From assembly GCF_000296775.1 (NCBI RefSeq), contig NZ_AJLE01000001.1:124001-188000 (forward strand): a DNA stretch of 64,000 nt, written 5' to 3'. How positions within the stretch are numbered: the first letter of the stretch is position 1; each line of letters begins with the position of its first letter. The notes under the pieces were generated by a model. It searched no databases and had not been told where the DNA came from. It saw nothing but the letters and a program-made list of their open reading frames with translations. Shown here in pieces: positions 30,874 to 40,636 of this stretch. The stretch comes from Sulfurovum sp. AR. Lineage in GTDB: Bacteria; Campylobacterota; Campylobacteria; Campylobacterales; Sulfurovaceae. Both the position numbers and the translations under genes were made by a program.

Positions 30874-30969
30874 TCTCTGAGAATATTTCAGATTGATATG
30901 TTAGAGTAAAGAAGAGCGCCTCCTGATCCAGGCAGTAATATAATGAAAAAAATAAGTGAGAGTAAGAGT

Positions 30970-31764
30970 ATGACAGATAAAGATGAGAATTATGCATTTC
31001 CATGGGGATTTCATATAGGAGATCTATACAAAGACAATGAGAGCCTCCCTTTATATACGCTCAGCAGTGACGGTGGATTCTGTCTATTGTATGACAGTGT
31101 CTCTGAAGCAAAGGCTGATAGGTTGCTGGAGAGTCTTTGTCTGGAACTTCTCTCAACCATGCCACATGAGAGTTTGAAAGTAGATCTTTTTGATTTTGGT
31201 AGAAAGAAGTTTTACAATCTTTCTCCTTTACAGTATGTTCAACTCTATAGAACAGCATATGATCCTAAGCTGATGTCAGCGCTTTTTGAGGAGCTTGAAG
31301 AGATGGTCATCTCCCGTCATAAAGAGCTGTTGTGCTGCAACAGGCCTACGATAAGCGAACATAATCAAAAATCAAAACTGAAACAGGTTTATCATCTGGT
31401 ACTGATCAATTTGGAAAACTTCCCCACAGAAGAACTTGAGTTGAGAAGAATCAAGAATTTTGTAGAATCTGCTGTCCAGGCGGGTGTCTATGTGATTGCA
31501 TTCGGTAATCAGGATATAGAACAAAGTGAAAATCAAACAACACAGACCATTCTGGAACATTTTAAGAAGCTGAGAGTCACCGAAGGTGAGTTTGCCATCA
31601 CCAAAGAGATCTTTGAATTTGTTGAACTTTTGGAAGATCACACGTTTAAGTCGCTTGATCTTGACAAAGGTGCCCTCATGCAAAAAGCACTGACCAATGC
31701 AGACATTGAAAGTCTTATCAACCCTGAGAATATCAAACTGGAAGAGAATACAAAAGTCAACTAA
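30970..31764 (+). CDS. Degenerate FtsK/SpoIIIE-like protein without Walker A
   Basis: A protein of about 264 residues. Its layout follows the FtsK/SpoIIIE ATPase core: LPLYTLSSDGGFCLLYD (where FtsK has its Walker A GTTGSGKS), LKVDLFDFGRKKFYNL (FtsK's IDPKR segment), AYDPKLMSALFEELEEMVISRHKELL, VYHLVLINLENFPTEEL (Walker B region, IDELADL in FtsK) and ESAVQAGVYVIAFGNQD. The P-loop lysine and the Walker B acidic pair are lost, so it should not hydrolyse ATP. This is inference from pattern. TATAAT at 30939-30944 overlaps an ATG at 30943; I prefer the ATG at 30970, though the longer form is possible. An alpha/beta-hydrolase-like gene follows immediately. Confidence 0.5.
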   Translation: MTDKDENYAFPWGFHIGDLYKDNESLPLYTLSSDGGFCLLYDSVSEAKADRLLESLCLELLSTMPHESLKVDLFDFGRKKFYNLSPLQYVQLYRTAYDPKLMSALFEELEEMVISRHKELLCCNRPTISEHNQKSKLKQVYHLVLINLENFPTEELELRRIKNFVESAVQAGVYVIAFGNQDIEQSENQTTQTILEHFKKLRVTEGEFAITKEIFEFVELLEDHTFKSLDLDKGALMQKALTNADIESLINPENIKLEENTKVN

Positions 31765-32942: not shown

Positions 32943-33166
32943 GATCTGCTATCCTTTTTGAACATTCATAATGATCTATTTTTTGTTACTTTACCTTAGT
33001 AATGTTAAAGTTGCTTGAAGCTATTTGAAAACAGTTATTTTTTGAGTATAAGAAGCCTGCTTCAATTTCTTATTATTATTTTATAGGGTTATTATGCTCA
33101 TACTTTTTAATCAAGTCAATGTTTCTAAGTTAAGTGACTGTTCGATAGGGAACACCTAAAGTACTA

Positions 33167-35290
33167 TTAACGTATATGCAACTTCCTTTTGAGCTTTTCT
33201 AATCTTGTTTTACCATTATTATATCCTTGCACTACAGATTTTTCATACCAGTAAAGTGCCTTTTTATAATTTATTCCCACTCCCCATCCATATTCGTAAC
33301 GTGCACCTAGCATTCCTTGAGCTACACCCAGTCCGCCGATTGCAGCTTTTTCACACCACATAAAAGCTTTTTTCTCATCTTTTGGTATCTCTTTATTTGC
33401 ATAATACAATTTACTGATTTCATAGTAAGCGTATACATCGTTTTGTGCAGCAGCCTTTTTGAACCAATACAAAGATTTATGATGATTCTGTTGAGTGCCT
33501 TTACCTTGTTGATAAAACCTTCCAACTTTATATTGTGCTTGAATATGACCTCGATTTGCAGCATTCAAATAGTGTTGTAATGCTTTTTTTTCATCTTTTT
33601 GTATCCCATTTATACCGTATTCCAGACTTCTGGCAATATGATATTGTTCACTTGCATCAATTTGTTGAGAAGTAACAGGATCAAAGGATCTTGAAGCCCA
33701 TGTCTCATTGTACTTAGGAACTTTATTGGTATTATTTTTATTTTTTAAATAGGATATTCTCTCTTTTGCAGCTTTATAACCCTGCTGATCGGCCTTTTCA
33801 TACCAGTGAAGTGCTTTTTGATGATCAACATGAACTCCTTTACCATTTTCATATATAAATCCCAATGCATATTGTGAAGAGGCATCACCTTTTTGGGCAT
33901 TTTTAAGGAAGAGGTTATATCCGCTTTTAAAGTCTTTTTCTCCTTCAGCAAAGACCATAAGATATGCTGCTTGCTTTTGGGCATATGCATCTCCATTTTT
34001 AGCAAGATCAAGATACAGTTCAAGTGCTTTCTTCTTATTTTTTTGTTCAATATATATTTGGGCAAGCTCTATTTTGGCTTTTTTACTATTTTGTTTAGAA
34101 GCATTGGTTAACCAATAAATAGACCGATGATCATCTTTTATAGAGATAGAACCCTTATGATAGATCTCTCCAAGATGAAGTTGTGAGAAAACATCTCCAT
34201 TTTTAGCTGCCTTTTCATACCACTCTAAGGCCCTGGCTTTATCCTGTTCAACACTGTAACCTCTTTCATAGATCTGTCCAAGTGCCCGCAGTGCTTCAGA
34301 ATTTCCAAAATATGCAACCAAATGGTAACGAAAAGTATCAAATACTGTAACATCTTCTACACGCATTTTTTGAGGTTGCGTAAAGAGTAGATAGATAGAA
34401 AAAAGCATGATGGCCGTAAGTGCTCCTAATCTTAGTTTTAAAGAAATTAAATCTGTTTTTGGTTTATTTGGAACTATAGGTTGAACCCTCTCTACAGGTT
34501 CACTAAAAATATTATGAAGCAGTGCTTTGATCTCTTGAAGTGTTTTGGGTCTATTATTAAGATCAGTAGATACCATACTGTTGATAAGCTCACATAAAAG
34601 TATAGAGTAACTGCTATTTGGCGTAAGTAGCTTAATGGAGTTTGCTGTTACAGGTACATTGTTATTTACCATAGTGTACATCAACAATCCAAGCCCATAT
34701 ATTATTTGAGTAGTACCATCTTTGGAATAGGGAACAAACTCATTATATCCGGCAAGCAGTACTTTAAAATCTTTCGAGATGTATAGCATATCCGCCTGTA
34801 TGCTATTGATCATTATTCCATTATGTTGTAATGCTAGAAGTAGTTCTGTGAGCGATGTAGCAAACTTACAAATTTGCTCTTCTGTATATGAAGAGGTGAC
34901 ATTATCCTGTAAGCTCTTTTGCAGTACTTGTCCCTCAATATAGTTTGAGACTGTATATACAGTTCCATTAGCTTCAAAAATACCAGTTACGCGCGACATA
35001 TATGGATGGCTAAAGTCTTTAAGTTTACCAGCAGTATCTGTCCATATTGTTTTACGACTATTAAAGGATTTATTTTTTGTTGGATGAACATAAACCATAA
35101 ATGTATCATCCTCTTCCATAAATCGTTTAGCAATATCTTTTGGAAAAAATTCAGTTAAAAACATATGACGATTTAAACGCATATCTTCGACATGGTATGT
35201 AATTGTATCGTTACTGCTTGCTACTACACTCTTTATCCAATAATGCCTAACTTGCGTACCTTGCGATAGTGCATACAGATTATCAATCAT
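33167..35290 (-). CDS. Pseudokinase - transmembrane - Sel1 repeat protein
   Basis: A 707-residue protein in three parts. Residues 8-265 follow the layout of bacterial Ser/Thr kinases of the type 'V.G.L....FFP' (LTEFFPKDIAKRF, HPYMSRVTGIFEANGTVYTVSNYIEG), but every catalytic residue is gone: the VAIK lysine is T46, the HRD-aspartate position is S163 (INSIQADML) and DFG reads AGY. Residues 287-303 form a transmembrane helix. Residues about 325-700 hold roughly ten Sel1 repeats with the A-x-x-x-LG-x-x-Y-x-x-G pattern (e.g. QYALGFIYENGKGVHVDHQKALHWYEKA). I infer a cytoplasmic pseudokinase tethered to periplasmic protein-binding repeats. It is divergently transcribed from the envelope genes that follow. 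Confidence 0.78.
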   Translation of the reverse strand: MIDNLYALSQGTQVRHYWIKSVVASSNDTITYHVEDMRLNRHMFLTEFFPKDIAKRFMEEDDTFMVYVHPTKNKSFNSRKTIWTDTAGKLKDFSHPYMSRVTGIFEANGTVYTVSNYIEGQVLQKSLQDNVTSSYTEEQICKFATSLTELLLALQHNGIMINSIQADMLYISKDFKVLLAGYNEFVPYSKDGTTQIIYGLGLLMYTMVNNNVPVTANSIKLLTPNSSYSILLCELINSMVSTDLNNRPKTLQEIKALLHNIFSEPVERVQPIVPNKPKTDLISLKLRLGALTAIMLFSIYLLFTQPQKMRVEDVTVFDTFRYHLVAYFGNSEALRALGQIYERGYSVEQDKARALEWYEKAAKNGDVFSQLHLGEIYHKGSISIKDDHRSIYWLTNASKQNSKKAKIELAQIYIEQKNKKKALELYLDLAKNGDAYAQKQAAYLMVFAEGEKDFKSGYNLFLKNAQKGDASSQYALGFIYENGKGVHVDHQKALHWYEKADQQGYKAAKERISYLKNKNNTNKVPKYNETWASRSFDPVTSQQIDASEQYHIARSLEYGINGIQKDEKKALQHYLNAANRGHIQAQYKVGRFYQQGKGTQQNHHKSLYWFKKAAAQNDVYAYYEISKLYYANKEIPKDEKKAFMWCEKAAIGGLGVAQGMLGARYEYGWGVGINYKKALYWYEKSVVQGYNNGKTRLEKLKRKLHIR

Positions 35291-35436
35291 TCTATATCCT
35301 TGAAAACAAAAGAAGTAAATATCATTTATCTTTTTAGTTTTATATATAAAAAAAATTATTATATAGGATTAGTATATGAGAAAGCTTAATTAAATCTTAA
35401 TATCGATAGAATCAAAAAACTAAAAAAAGGGGACAC

Positions 35437-36861
35437 ATGAAACAGATTAAGAAGTATTTCTACATGTTTTTAACCATTTTCATACTTCTTAATGTAGTTG
35501 TCTATACAAATGTTTATACGCGATATGTCTCACATGCTCCTATGAACTTAAAGGAAGCAAGAACAGATCTTGTAAATGCAACTATGTTCCATGTGTATTA
35601 CACATTTTTTGTCAAAACCGTACGTATAGATTTTCTTAACCCCATACTGTATCCGTTAAAGGCTCCCCGAGATCATTTTTATCATAAGGGCATAAATAAG
35701 ATTCCGGACAATGAAGCGGAAAGAGCGATATGGTTTGATATGTTTGAAGTAAGACCCTACAACTTTTCTGTCCGTGCAAGATATGGTTCTATGGCTCGAA
35801 TATATGGAAAAGAGGTTTCAAAAAACTTTATCGATAAAGTGTATGAGAATATCAAGTTGTTATCACTGTATGAGTTGAGTGACAAGAATACACCCGATAT
35901 CAGTGAAGACATCTTAGAAGTTTATATAGATCTCATTCATCTATATATTTATGATTTTCATTTACATCCTAAAGGATTTTTGTTTAATAAAGAAAATATG
36001 GAAAAAGTCAGCACCGATTTTAATCTATATCAACGGTTTGAAAATATATATAAATGGCAAAATAGTTTAGTAGAACATTATGCTAAGGAACACAAAAATC
36101 AATACAAACGTGTCCTTGATCCCAATAAAGGCTGGTATAGTCCTTATAGAAACCTCATTGACAACAAGTTTATTCTTTCATCCTTTATCTTGTTTTATAA
36201 AGTGAATAATAAGCTATTTGATTGTGCAAAAGACAAGAAGTATCTGGTAGATCAGGAAGAAGGTATTAGAAAGTATAAAAAGCTTTTAAAAGCTCATTCC
36301 AAAAAATCAAAACAAAAACAGGTAACAAGCCGAATGGTTTCTTATCTTATTATGCCTAATAGTTTAGATACAAAAAACTCTCACTTAAATTTTGAGAATA
36401 CGTTAGGGCTTACTGTAACTTGTAATGACTCAAACCAAAATCAAATATCTACACAAAACAAACTCTTAAAAAATACTCAAGCGCCAATTCGAGATAAACA
36501 AATTCATAGCTATTCTACTGAGTATAGAGGACTTAGGGTTGGGAGTTCAACCCTATCTGATGTTGTCAATGTTTTAGGTGAAATAATAGCCAAGATTAAT
36601 AACAGTAACAACGTAAACTATAGATTTGATAAAGTAGATGTTACGATTCAAGATGCTACAGGTCATATAAACACGATTATTATTTATGATGAAGATTATG
36701 TAGATGTTAATGGATATAAGATTGGTACTTCATATGATGTGATAAGTAAGGACTTAAATGTTGAAGGTACTCACCAAGTATTAATAGAACGATCAAATGG
36801 AGTTATATACTGGTTTAAGAATCAACGTGTTTCAAGAATAGTATATGCTGCACAGTTGTAA
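35437..36861 (+). CDS. Membrane-anchored protein with two C-terminal repeat modules
   Basis: A 474-residue protein with one N-terminal transmembrane segment (about residues 7-25, FYMFLTIFILLNVVVYTNVYT) that probably leaves the rest in the periplasm. The middle is charged, helical and unrecognised. The C-terminus contains two short related modules, GLRVGSSTLSDVVNVLGE and later NGYKIGTSYDVISKDLN, each followed by beta-strand-like sequence (IIIYDEDYVDV, VIYWFKNQRVSRIV). The pattern is like BamE/SmpA-type or related 'G.x.G.s..dV...LG' domains, which is only a weak resemblance. AAGGGG precedes the ATG. It is the first of a five-gene AT-rich run. Confidence 0.6.
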   Translation: MKQIKKYFYMFLTIFILLNVVVYTNVYTRYVSHAPMNLKEARTDLVNATMFHVYYTFFVKTVRIDFLNPILYPLKAPRDHFYHKGINKIPDNEAERAIWFDMFEVRPYNFSVRARYGSMARIYGKEVSKNFIDKVYENIKLLSLYELSDKNTPDISEDILEVYIDLIHLYIYDFHLHPKGFLFNKENMEKVSTDFNLYQRFENIYKWQNSLVEHYAKEHKNQYKRVLDPNKGWYSPYRNLIDNKFILSSFILFYKVNNKLFDCAKDKKYLVDQEEGIRKYKKLLKAHSKKSKQKQVTSRMVSYLIMPNSLDTKNSHLNFENTLGLTVTCNDSNQNQISTQNKLLKNTQAPIRDKQIHSYSTEYRGLRVGSSTLSDVVNVLGEIIAKINNSNNVNYRFDKVDVTIQDATGHINTIIIYDEDYVDVNGYKIGTSYDVISKDLNVEGTHQVLIERSNGVIYWFKNQRVSRIVYAAQL

Positions 36862-36923
36862 TTTTTGTGATAAAAAACTTTACAAATGATGAATTTAAAA
36901 TATTTATAGAAGTAGGAATGTGT

Positions 36924-39900
36924 ATGTTAATTAAAAAGATTTTATGGATTTTAGCTTTGTTGATTTCAACTTTGTTTGGATCGGTAGATTTTCCACAGGT
37001 TTATACTGTTTTTAAAAAAACGGACGATGCCGATAGAATTAAGAAAATAGTACTGAGTAAAGATCAAAAGCGCCTTTTGGTAATGCGTCATAACTCTGTG
37101 AGTCTCATGGATGCAAAAAATTTCAAAGTGATTAAAAAGATAACTTTTAAAGGTAGCGCTTGGGATTGTGACTTTGCAGAAGAAGGGTTTGTGCTTTTAA
37201 CCCATCATGATTTTACTTACTATGATGATACAGGTACAAATCGTCTCTATTATACAGAGCGAAGGGACGGTGGACAAATAGCCAAAATGGATATGCGTAA
37301 AAACGGCTACATTGTCAATCTTATCAAAGAAATAGACAGGCCTAAAAAAGATGACATCGTCAAACGTATTTTAGAAATGCAGCGAACAGGGAACACAGCT
37401 AATATAGCGCATTTAAATCAGAGTGAAAAAAGGCTTGTAACATTAAACCTTAGAACCAAAGAGTACAAAGAGACAATTTACAAGACAGATTTCAAAGCTA
37501 AACATTATCTCAATGACATACGAGATAATGTTTTAAAAATTTCAACTGGAAGTCATACATATGACTATATCAATGTCCTCACTGGAACAAAAGTAAAGGA
37601 TTTCCCAGGTGAAAATATTCTTCCAAATGGCAAACAAATTATTGATGCAAAAGAGCTCATTCTACAAGATATTACACAAAAGAAAGTGATTCAGTCCTAT
37701 ACTAAACCAGCAGGGCGTTTTAAATTTGGATGCATGGACCCCTCAGGAAAAAGATTTGCTATTCTGACTATAAATGAGCCTGTCTATGTATATGATATAA
37801 ATAAAAGCGAACCGATTTTTTCACTTCCACGGAATCTTAATACATCTAAAACACGTAATTGCCTCTTGTATGATGACACTTTAATTCTGTGGGGAAAATC
37901 GATGCAGGCTTATAACATTAAAGATGCAAACAAGATAGAAAATGCTGTGAGCCGTTCGTTAGAAGTGATGCCTATTATAGGCAGCTGTACAGATGCATCA
38001 TATGGTGTCAGTTTGTGGGTAAACACTATGTATGGCTGGGATGTAGAAAAGGGTCAGATGCTCTGGTACTCAATAGGCCCTGAATTTAACCGAAGTCATT
38101 GGGAAAATGCAAGTTACCTTATAAAGATGCAAAGTGATGACAAAATTGCCTTTGTTCAACCCTATGGGCAACGTGCTTTTAAAGAGTTAAGAGTGAATTT
38201 AGAGAATGGAACCTTTATAGAACAGGGAAACAAAAAACGTGAAAAATCTACAGGTAAATCAATCATATGTGATCCTGGAAGTGGCGAGGTGTGGTTAGAA
38301 AAAGAGTTTAGTTTTACTCATAACGGGGTAAGTTTTTATGCTTTGAGCCAAGGAGAATGGCTGGTCATTAGTAATAATGACGGGTATTTTAATGCTTCCA
38401 GCAAAGATGCTCTTTCCCTACTGCATAAAGACCATAAAGCACTCACAGATGAAGACATAGAAAAATGGTACAGACCCGATATCATTCAAGCAAAATTATC
38501 AAATAAAATAATTGAAGAACTATCGAAAAGAAAAACAAATTTTAAATTACCTGAAAAATCACAACTTACAAATCAGTATTTTGCAAGTATATTGCAAGGA
38601 GTTAAAACTGGGAATAATTACGACAGACTTATGCAGTTACTGAAACTAGCAACTCTTGATCAGATCAGTCAAATTGTCGATGCCATTCCAAATGATGAAA
38701 AAGGTTATTTCTACTTTTATAGAGCATTGAGTGTCAAAAAGTTTCGTCACAAGCAACCAGAGCTTTTTAGTTTTCTAGATAAACGGGTAGAGAACCTTTC
38801 TTCATACTCAAATGAAGTTCCAGCCTTACTAGAGTATCTCATGAGATTTAGGGTGTATAAAAAAACTCCTGAATTTAGGAAAAAGAAAGAAATATTAATT
38901 GAAAGTATTTGGACAAAATATAAGGATAATGAGCGTGTTAAACTTATGATTGCATCAATGCGTAAAACTGATGAAGCATACACAACAATTTATTGGGATG
39001 TGTGGGAGCAAGAAGACTATATCACAAAAGAACATTTGGAGATTTTATATGAAGAAAACCCTTTAAGGGCTCAGAAGTTAGCAGTTCAATCATTAACAAA
39101 CTTGTTAAAGAAACTTGATCAATTGGGGTGTAAAGAGGATCAGTTAAATACAAATATTTGTCAGGATGACTTTGAGATGAAAACATATGGAACTTTTAGG
39201 ACACGTATTAGCACTCTGTATGACTTTTTAATAACAGATAAAACAGCTGTACCTTTGGATCCATTAAAAAGAATTACAGCACAAAAGGTAAAAACATTTT
39301 ATGCAGATAATGAGGCTGATAGATGGGGAATAAATGCTCAATATATAAAATTTTATGCAAAGTATAGTAATGAAGTTGAAAAGAAAGAGTTAATAAAATC
39401 AACTAAAGACTTTTTAGAAAAAGCAATTTTTCAAACTGACTGGAAGCAATACTGGAACAGTAGTTATTTTCGAGATAAAAACTCAAAAATAAAAGCAATT
39501 CACAAGGGCATGCTAGAAACCATGCCAAAATATTTTTTGCAATTAGAATCAAGAATAATTGCTTCTGACAATCGATATTTACATGAACATTTAGACTACC
39601 TCATAACCGATATAGAAAAAAATCCTTTTGTTCAGAAAGCAATGATCCAAAGTATCTTAGAAGAATTTCATGACAATGGATATGTAGACTACCAATATAT
39701 TGGTAGATTATTAAATACAAATAGCAAAGAAATTCATTTACAAGTTATAGATATGTTTAATCAATTCAAAGATTGCAATAAAATAAGGGATAATTACCGA
39801 TATAAGCTCAAACGTGTTTTATCTCTAAAAGAATATATGCGTCTTGAATGTGATCCGTTATCTAATGAAAGTATCCCATATAACAAGCAAGAAGAGTACG

Positions 39901-39929
39901 CACCATTGTATAAGACAATGCAAAAATAA
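36924..39929 (+). CDS. Secreted propeller/helical-repeat protein, unknown function
   Basis: A 1001-residue protein. I place the start at 36924, where AGGA lies six bases upstream and the N-terminus is a good signal peptide (MLIKKILWILALLISTLFGS); an ATG at 36867 would add 19 polar residues before it. Residues about 20-470 are beta-propeller-like, with repeats such as VLSKDQKRLLVMRHNSVSLMDAKNF and FAILTINEPVYVYDINKSEP. Residues about 475-520 read GEWLVISNNDGYFNASSKDA and then IEKWYRPDIIQAKL, a motif I know from WD40 proteins that usually precede a caspase-like peptidase. Here the peptidase is missing; residues about 530-1001 are predicted helical repeats. Confidence 0.65.
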   Translation: MLIKKILWILALLISTLFGSVDFPQVYTVFKKTDDADRIKKIVLSKDQKRLLVMRHNSVSLMDAKNFKVIKKITFKGSAWDCDFAEEGFVLLTHHDFTYYDDTGTNRLYYTERRDGGQIAKMDMRKNGYIVNLIKEIDRPKKDDIVKRILEMQRTGNTANIAHLNQSEKRLVTLNLRTKEYKETIYKTDFKAKHYLNDIRDNVLKISTGSHTYDYINVLTGTKVKDFPGENILPNGKQIIDAKELILQDITQKKVIQSYTKPAGRFKFGCMDPSGKRFAILTINEPVYVYDINKSEPIFSLPRNLNTSKTRNCLLYDDTLILWGKSMQAYNIKDANKIENAVSRSLEVMPIIGSCTDASYGVSLWVNTMYGWDVEKGQMLWYSIGPEFNRSHWENASYLIKMQSDDKIAFVQPYGQRAFKELRVNLENGTFIEQGNKKREKSTGKSIICDPGSGEVWLEKEFSFTHNGVSFYALSQGEWLVISNNDGYFNASSKDALSLLHKDHKALTDEDIEKWYRPDIIQAKLSNKIIEELSKRKTNFKLPEKSQLTNQYFASILQGVKTGNNYDRLMQLLKLATLDQISQIVDAIPNDEKGYFYFYRALSVKKFRHKQPELFSFLDKRVENLSSYSNEVPALLEYLMRFRVYKKTPEFRKKKEILIESIWTKYKDNERVKLMIASMRKTDEAYTTIYWDVWEQEDYITKEHLEILYEENPLRAQKLAVQSLTNLLKKLDQLGCKEDQLNTNICQDDFEMKTYGTFRTRISTLYDFLITDKTAVPLDPLKRITAQKVKTFYADNEADRWGINAQYIKFYAKYSNEVEKKELIKSTKDFLEKAIFQTDWKQYWNSSYFRDKNSKIKAIHKGMLETMPKYFLQLESRIIASDNRYLHEHLDYLITDIEKNPFVQKAMIQSILEEFHDNGYVDYQYIGRLLNTNSKEIHLQVIDMFNQFKDCNKIRDNYRYKLKRVLSLKEYMRLECDPLSNESIPYNKQEEYAPLYKTMQK

Positions 39930-39953
39930 TAATTGGAATGGAGAAGGGAAGTA

Positions 39954-40232
39954 ATGCATTACATAGGAATTATTGGTATTCTTTTTATAGGGGTAGGAGT
40001 ATTTTTATTTGTTGTTCAAACAATTTATGCTGGTTGTCACTTAAATAGCACTCAGTTTAAAGATTACGAAAACATTTCTAAAAAACCTTTAGATATACGT
40101 ACAGAAGATGAAAAAAAACTAATGAAAGATAGTTGGGCTAGATACTATTTTACAAAGGTTAGGAATATTGGCTATAAAGTTGGACTACCATTATTGGGTT
40201 TAGCGTTATTGTTTGATTACATTATAAAATAA
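39954..40232 (+). CDS. Small membrane protein with two transmembrane helices (A)
   Basis: A 92-residue protein with helices at about residues 3-22 and 72-88, separated by a charged loop of about 50 residues. The start at 39954 follows AAGGGAAG at good spacing; the ATG at 39933 would add seven charged residues before the first helix. It belongs to no family I recognise. It resembles the next gene in layout (helix, acidic/basic loop with a KK...D segment, helix), so the pair may be distant paralogues. Confidence 0.55.
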   Translation: MHYIGIIGILFIGVGVFLFVVQTIYAGCHLNSTQFKDYENISKKPLDIRTEDEKKLMKDSWARYYFTKVRNIGYKVGLPLLGLALLFDYIIK

Positions 40233-40241
40233 AGGATACTG

Positions 40242-40511
40242 ATGTTTGACCTACGGTATTTATGTGTTGTTGGGATTATTTTAATAATATTTGGTCTGTG
40301 GCTACATGCAACCATTTATTGGGATCTTAGAAATGCTCCTGCTTTTAAAAAGAAGTTAGAAGATCTTGCACTGAAGAATAAAAAAGATATTAGTTTTGGA
40401 GATAGGGTTAATTTAAATATACCAAGGTTCGGGAAGAAAATTGCAAAAGTATCTACATTGAGTGGCTTGATTATTGTTTTTATAAGTTGCATTAGTAAAA
40501 TGGTTTTTTAA
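40242..40511 (+). CDS. Small membrane protein with two transmembrane helices (B)
   Basis: An 89-residue protein with helices at about residues 7-23 and 72-88 and a basic loop between. It has the same layout as the preceding gene and lies nine bases downstream. AAAGGA-like sequence precedes the start. Function unknown; co-occurrence with the secreted propeller protein suggests a shared envelope complex, which is inference. Confidence 0.55.
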   Translation: MFDLRYLCVVGIILIIFGLWLHATIYWDLRNAPAFKKKLEDLALKNKKDISFGDRVNLNIPRFGKKIAKVSTLSGLIIVFISCISKMVF

Positions 40512-40540
40512 CAATAAATTGATTTAAAAGGAATAATTTT

Positions 40541-40633
40541 ATGAAAGAATGTCCAAGTTGTAATGAAAATCTCATAAAATATTCTATCTATGGTATCATT
40601 TATAAAGATAATACTTTCAGATGGGAAAAGTAG
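40541..40633 (+). CDS. 30-residue peptide with a CxxC knuckle
   Basis: An open frame from ATG 40541 to TAG 40631-40633 encodes 30 residues starting MKECPSCNENLIKY. AAAAGGA lies eight bases before the ATG. CPSC is a single zinc knuckle, as at the start of many small zinc-ribbon proteins, so this may be a truncated member (half of the ribbon is missing) or a real micro-protein. The next gene starts three bases after the stop. Confidence 0.4.
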   Translation: MKECPSCNENLIKYSIYGIIYKDNTFRWEK

Positions 40634-40636
40634 ATA

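What the first reader, a model, noticed from the sequence alone, without database searches (positions are those of the whole stretch)
33167..40633. AT-rich island with pseudokinase-Sel1 protein, secreted propeller protein and small membrane proteins
A single block of unfamiliar genes is embedded among housekeeping genes: on one strand a pseudokinase joined through a membrane helix to about ten Sel1 repeats, and on the other a membrane-anchored protein with two C-terminal modules, a 1001-residue secreted propeller/helical protein, and two small two-helix membrane proteins. All are predicted to sit in or face the envelope, share the divergent 146-base region as control point, and look more AT-rich than their neighbours. 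Sel1 repeats and propellers both bind proteins, so they could form a scaffold that a cytoplasmic pseudokinase reports on. This is the strongest candidate here for an undescribed envelope system. The functional link is inference.
Basis: partly seen in the sequence, partly recalled or inferred. Interest (0 to 1): 0.7.

Follow-up and report, generated by a model that had tools for sequence, protein, structure and literature searches.

The report
Acquired island of toxin-immunity-like genes
A 7.5-kb block of foreign, AT-rich genes has replaced other cargo at a variable spot in this bacterium's chromosome; it looks less like one machine than like a collection of acquired membrane proteins, one of which belongs to a family whose relatives sit directly beside giant RTX-type secreted toxins, and so it probably protects the cell from such toxins.

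Summary
The genes are there and all five large and small products have a membrane helix or signal peptide. The block is 32.3% GC against 38.3-42.5% for other 7.5-kb stretches. A close relative (G003, 81-88% DNA identity in the flanks) carries unrelated 2.8-kb cargo at the same site, so the unit is an acquired island, about 33054-40581.

The interpretation as one dedicated envelope system is not supported. The families are scattered. The pseudokinase-Sel1 gene travels with a small two-helix gene in G072, at another site, and stands alone in G215. The putative propeller protein stands alone in G024.

A different link emerged. The membrane-anchored protein at 35437-36861 is a divergent member of an unnamed family in 19 of 299 genomes. 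In 8 of 20 fetched loci (9 with a weaker case) its gene abuts a giant RTX/LysM toxin-family gene or a fragment of one, once beside type I secretion genes. Elsewhere it is an orphan. The window's genome has its own RTX and type I secretion genes. I read the island as a mosaic of orphan immunity-like genes against type I-secreted toxins. Immunity is inferred, not shown; the role of the pseudokinase and propeller proteins is open.

The parts
33054..40581 (.). acquired island (edges within about 30 bases); AT-rich; stands where G003 has unrelated 2.8-kb cargo
   Evidence: both flanks align to G003 at 81-88% DNA identity up to 33053 and from 40582; island GC 32.3%
33167..35290 (-). pseudokinase (about 1-270) - TM helix (281-299) - Sel1 repeats (about 326-700)
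   Evidence: relatives in G072 (87%) and G215 (37%)
35291..35436 (.). divergent intergenic control region, conserved with G072 up to the start codon of the right-hand gene
   Evidence: alignment 33080-35451 at 89.8%
35437..36861 (+). protein 2: N-terminal TM helix plus about 300-aa domain of a family found beside RTX toxin genes; extra C-terminal region (about 365-474)
36924..39929 (+). 1001-aa protein with signal peptide: putative beta-propeller N half, helical C half; relative only in G024, there split in two ORFs and alone
39954..40232 (+). small membrane protein 1 (92 aa from ATG; TTG 39933 gives 99 aa)
40242..40511 (+). small two-TM protein 2 (89 aa); relatives in G072 (62%), G172, G114
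40542..40634 (+). 30-codon remnant of the 147-aa MKECPSCNE membrane protein that is intact in G072, cut at the island's right edge

Best explanation
The block is a horizontally acquired cassette island at a variable chromosomal site, holding orphan immunity-like membrane proteins rather than one machine. Protein 2 is a divergent member of a membrane-anchored family whose relatives are coupled to genes for giant RTX/LysM proteins of the kind secreted by type I systems. The likely mechanism, inferred, is that protein 2, with one helix in the inner membrane and its domain in the periplasm, binds or blocks the membrane-attacking part of such a toxin when neighbours or kin deliver it. The small two-helix proteins would do the same for other membrane-targeting toxins, much as CdzI does in Caulobacter. 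The pseudokinase-Sel1 protein travels with the small genes. Its Sel1 domain could be a toxin-binding decoy, as with the Sel1E immunity protein, or a periplasmic sensor joined to a catalytically dead kinase domain. Shown: acquisition, alternative cargo at the site, scattered families, and adjacency of the protein-2 family to RTX genes. Inferred: immunity, mode of action, and any joint action.
For: Island edges and different cargo in G003. Same kinase gene and promoter region at another site in G072 with different right-hand cargo, and a gene intact there but truncated here. Protein-2 family in 19 of 299 genomes. In 8 of 20 fetched loci its gene abuts (overlap of about 14 to gap of about 14 bases) an RTX/LysM-family ORF: five with Pfam RTX repeats (L038, L069, L074, L078, L079) and three homologous fragments or LysM-bearing relatives (L075, L084, L086), with L087 a weaker ninth. 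RTX ORFs number only a few per genome, so adjacency by chance would be around or under 1% per locus (rough estimate). Type I secretion genes lie in the G359 locus and beside an RTX gene in the window's own genome. Other loci are orphans, and G215, G224, G245 and G282 have no RTX hit at all, as expected of immunity genes. G114 has protein 2 and the small two-TM gene close together. Precedents: CdzI, a small TM immunity protein of a type I-secreted toxin (PMC5380434); orphan immunity arrays left by cassette replacement (PMC5361080); Sel1E immunity (PMC7108748).
Against: No toxin gene lies in the island and no immunity assay exists. A gene next to an RTX gene could be a chaperone, secretion accessory or activator. 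The window's protein 2 is only about 26% identical to its nearest relative in G093 and has an extra C-terminal region. No relative of the 1001-aa protein itself was found beside an RTX gene, and beta-propellers were reported absent from known immunity proteins (PMC3482391). Kinase-Sel1 in G215 is alone and not near an RTX locus.
Confidence: 0.5

Rival explanations
1. Protein 2 and its family are accessory factors (chaperone, membrane tether or release factor) for export or retention of giant RTX proteins, not immunity proteins; the island copy is a leftover.
For: The family gene overlaps or abuts the RTX start, which suits co-translation and assembly; it lies in the G359 locus with type I export genes.
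Against: Many copies stand far from any RTX gene, and several genomes with the family have no RTX hit; tandem divergent copies in G093, G095 and G215 are typical of immunity genes.
Confidence: 0.25
2. Kinase-Sel1 is a stand-alone signalling receptor (PpkA-like pseudokinase, TM, periplasmic Sel1) unrelated to toxin immunity; the island is simply unrelated genes accumulated at a hotspot.
For: Best solved-structure match is PpkA of type VI secretion; G215 copy is alone; G003 has unrelated cargo at the same site.
Against: It moves together with the small two-TM gene in G000 and G072; protein 2 has a clear RTX association.
Confidence: 0.17
3. One reading: one dedicated envelope system in which Sel1 and propeller proteins form a scaffold that the pseudokinase reports on.
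For: Shared divergent control region; all proteins have a membrane helix or signal peptide; compact + strand gene order.
Against: No genome but this one was found with the set; propeller and kinase never co-occur elsewhere; G072 keeps the kinase without protein 2 or propeller.
Confidence: 0.08

Closest known systems
Cdz system of Caulobacter (CdzI immunity protein; PMC5380434)
   Same: type I secretion, small inner-membrane immunity protein, toxins with glycine-zipper motifs; the G093 and G359 RTX proteins carry glycine-rich hydrophobic segments near the N-terminus
   Different: Cdz toxins are under 100 aa, here giant RTX proteins; no sequence homology shown; no toxin in the island
Orphan immunity gene arrays of Vibrio cholerae T6SS clusters (PMC5361080)
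   Same: cassette replacement, immunity-like genes without a toxin
   Different: T6SS effectors there; here the relatives sit beside type I/RTX genes, and the island is not beside secretion genes
Sel1E immunity protein of Klebsiella (PMC7108748)
   Same: Sel1 repeats
   Different: no kinase domain reported for Sel1E; T6SS VgrG4 toxin
PpkA kinase of type VI secretion
   Same: kinase-like fold in the N-terminal region; one TM helix after it (PpkA topology from general knowledge)
   Different: catalytic Lys, HRD and DFG are absent here; the part after the TM helix is Sel1 repeats
RTX toxin operons (HlyCABD type)
   Same: relatives of protein 2 lie in such loci
   Different: protein 2 has no Pfam or NCBIfam match to an RTX acyltransferase

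Membership tests
Orphan immunity island of polymorphic toxins | homologues of its genes form toxin-immunity pairs elsewhere | tested here: inconclusive
   met in position for protein 2 only: 8-9 of 20 loci directly beside RTX/LysM-family ORFs; immunity activity not tested
Orphan immunity island of polymorphic toxins | no cognate toxin in the island | tested here: met
   no RTX motif in the window, no toxin domain in Pfam, PADLOC or NCBIfam scans
Orphan immunity island of polymorphic toxins | horizontal acquisition and cassette turnover | tested here: met
Orphan immunity island of polymorphic toxins | protects against a toxin | not testable with these tools
   needs an assay
Active protein kinase | catalytic Lys, HRD Asp, DFG Asp | tested here: not met
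   LTEFFP where active relatives have the Lys of IKEYFP (consensus from general knowledge); no HRD or DFG in G000, G072 or G215
Sel1-repeat protein | several Sel1 repeats over the Pfam cut-off | tested here: met
   Pfam PF08238 162.5 bits, 7 stretches
Beta-propeller protein (36924-39929) | propeller fold | tested here: inconclusive
   Pfam WD40-type E 0.029; single-sequence model mean pLDDT 39
Known anti-phage defence system | full-length match to a PADLOC model | tested here: not met
   only short kinase and Sel1 sub-matches
Dedicated four-gene envelope system | co-occurrence of the families across genomes | tested here: not met

The most novel reading that the evidence does not exclude
A pseudokinase receptor with a periplasmic Sel1 ectodomain senses incoming type I-secreted RTX toxins and, through the shared divergent promoter, controls a swappable set of membrane immunity proteins: a regulated, cassette-based defence against RTX toxins.
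Probability: 0.1. Interest if true: 0.75.

Novelty: new variant of a known kind. Interest (0 to 1): 0.45.

Why it matters
If right, giant RTX proteins in this bacterial order are in part weapons between bacteria with their own, so far unnamed, membrane immunity family. The family (no Pfam or NCBIfam match) marks both toxin loci and orphan islands, which makes interbacterial use of RTX proteins testable.

Tried and rejected
Anti-phage defence: only partial kinase/Sel1 matches in PADLOC. Plasmid carriage: no match for protein 2 or the propeller protein, only Sel1-region matches for the kinase gene. Viral contigs: none for protein 2. Genome-contig scans with the propeller and kinase proteins gave no confirmed relative, so organism names were not obtained. 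Island-end repeats: no convincing direct repeat or integrase. A strict RTX regular expression missed several RTX proteins that Pfam finds, so Pfam and all-against-all BLAST were used. Single-sequence structure models were too poor for fold searches. Calbindin hits for the helical half are weak and ignored.

Full report
Observation. The block is AT-rich: 32.3% GC against 38.3-42.5% for all other 7.5-kb segments of the window. The kinase-like protein has seven significant Sel1 stretches and a below-cut-off kinase match; the nearest solved structure is PpkA. The catalytic lysine, HRD and DFG motifs are missing in all three copies found, so 'pseudokinase' is fair. Hydropathy gives one TM helix in the kinase protein, an N-terminal helix in protein 2 and the 1001-aa protein, and one or two helices in the small proteins. 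The propeller assignment remains weak.

The island. In the close relative G003 the two flanks are joined by a different 2.8-kb insert; alignment stops at window 33053 and resumes at 40582. The window block therefore replaced, or alternates with, other cargo. In G072 the stretch 33080-35451 (kinase gene plus the divergent promoter up to the next start codon) is 89.8% identical at another chromosomal site, followed by a relative of the last small gene and by an intact 147-aa gene. The window holds only the start of that gene, cut at the island's right edge. These are marks of cassette turnover.

One system? Kinase-Sel1 relatives with the kinase part: G072 among 150 relatives and G215 among 249 order genomes. 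Propeller protein: only G024, alone and split into two ORFs. ORF5 small protein: clear matches in G000, G072, G172 and G114. Protein-2 family: 19 of 299.

What the protein-2 family is. In G093 two relatives precede a 2526-aa protein with RTX repeats, LysM and cadherin-like domains. In G359 a relative abuts a 2041-aa RTX/LysM protein, with ABC-exporter-like, HlyD-like and outer-membrane-like genes on its other side (these three named from sequence and size). An all-against-all comparison of neighbours of 20 loci recovers one dominant neighbour family, the RTX/LysM proteins and their fragments; the family gene abuts one in 8 loci, with a weaker case in a ninth. Repeat proteins with a C-terminal Lcl_C domain also recur in RTX loci (Sel1 in L075 and L086, ankyrin in the window's own genome), and a propeller-like protein sits in L079; none of these is shown to be a homologue of the window's propeller protein. 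The window's genome carries RTX ORFs of 2708 and 1298 aa at two contig ends and a type I export set beside the second. Four genomes with the family have no RTX hit.

Mechanism. Position beside toxin-like genes, membrane anchoring, orphan copies and cassette turnover fit immunity. A secretion accessory role is the main rival. CdzI of Caulobacter, an inner-membrane immunity protein of a type I-secreted toxin, is the nearest working precedent (PMC5380434); orphan immunity arrays formed by cassette replacement are known for T6SS (PMC5361080); a Sel1 protein serves as immunity in Klebsiella (PMC7108748). A polymorphic-toxin survey noted no beta-propellers among immunity proteins (PMC3482391), so the 1001-aa protein's inclusion is the weakest link.

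Limits. Loci from one genome (G185, G095) and near-identical loci (G139, G299) are not fully independent.

Noticed in passing
L110:1-8124 and L111:10113-14009 (G000:C3 start, G000:C4 end): The window's genome has RTX ORFs at two contig ends, one preceded by an ankyrin-Lcl_C protein and the other followed by a type I export set; they may be parts of one gene, which was not joined or tested.
   Followed up: partly
window 30943-31764: 273-aa protein with a partial match to the FtsK/EssC-type secretion ATPase model (NCBIfam 1.7e-6) but far below its cut-off, among housekeeping genes.
   Followed up: no
L134:4540-7348 (G003): Alternative cargo at the same site: a methyltransferase-like membrane protein, a 331-aa protein and a 208-aa zinc-ribbon-like protein.
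   Followed up: no
L003:8419-11261 (G024): The propeller relative is split into two ORFs, either a frameshift or two genes.
   Followed up: partly
L036:17531-17740 (G072): A 69-aa ORF from TTG follows the conserved promoter where the window has protein 2; the conserved ATG there opens only six codons, suggesting a broken gene.
   Followed up: no
L087:5979-8729 (G373): A lipase-like toxin-family protein and a 429-aa lipoprotein of unknown fold lie beside a protein-2 relative.
   Followed up: partly
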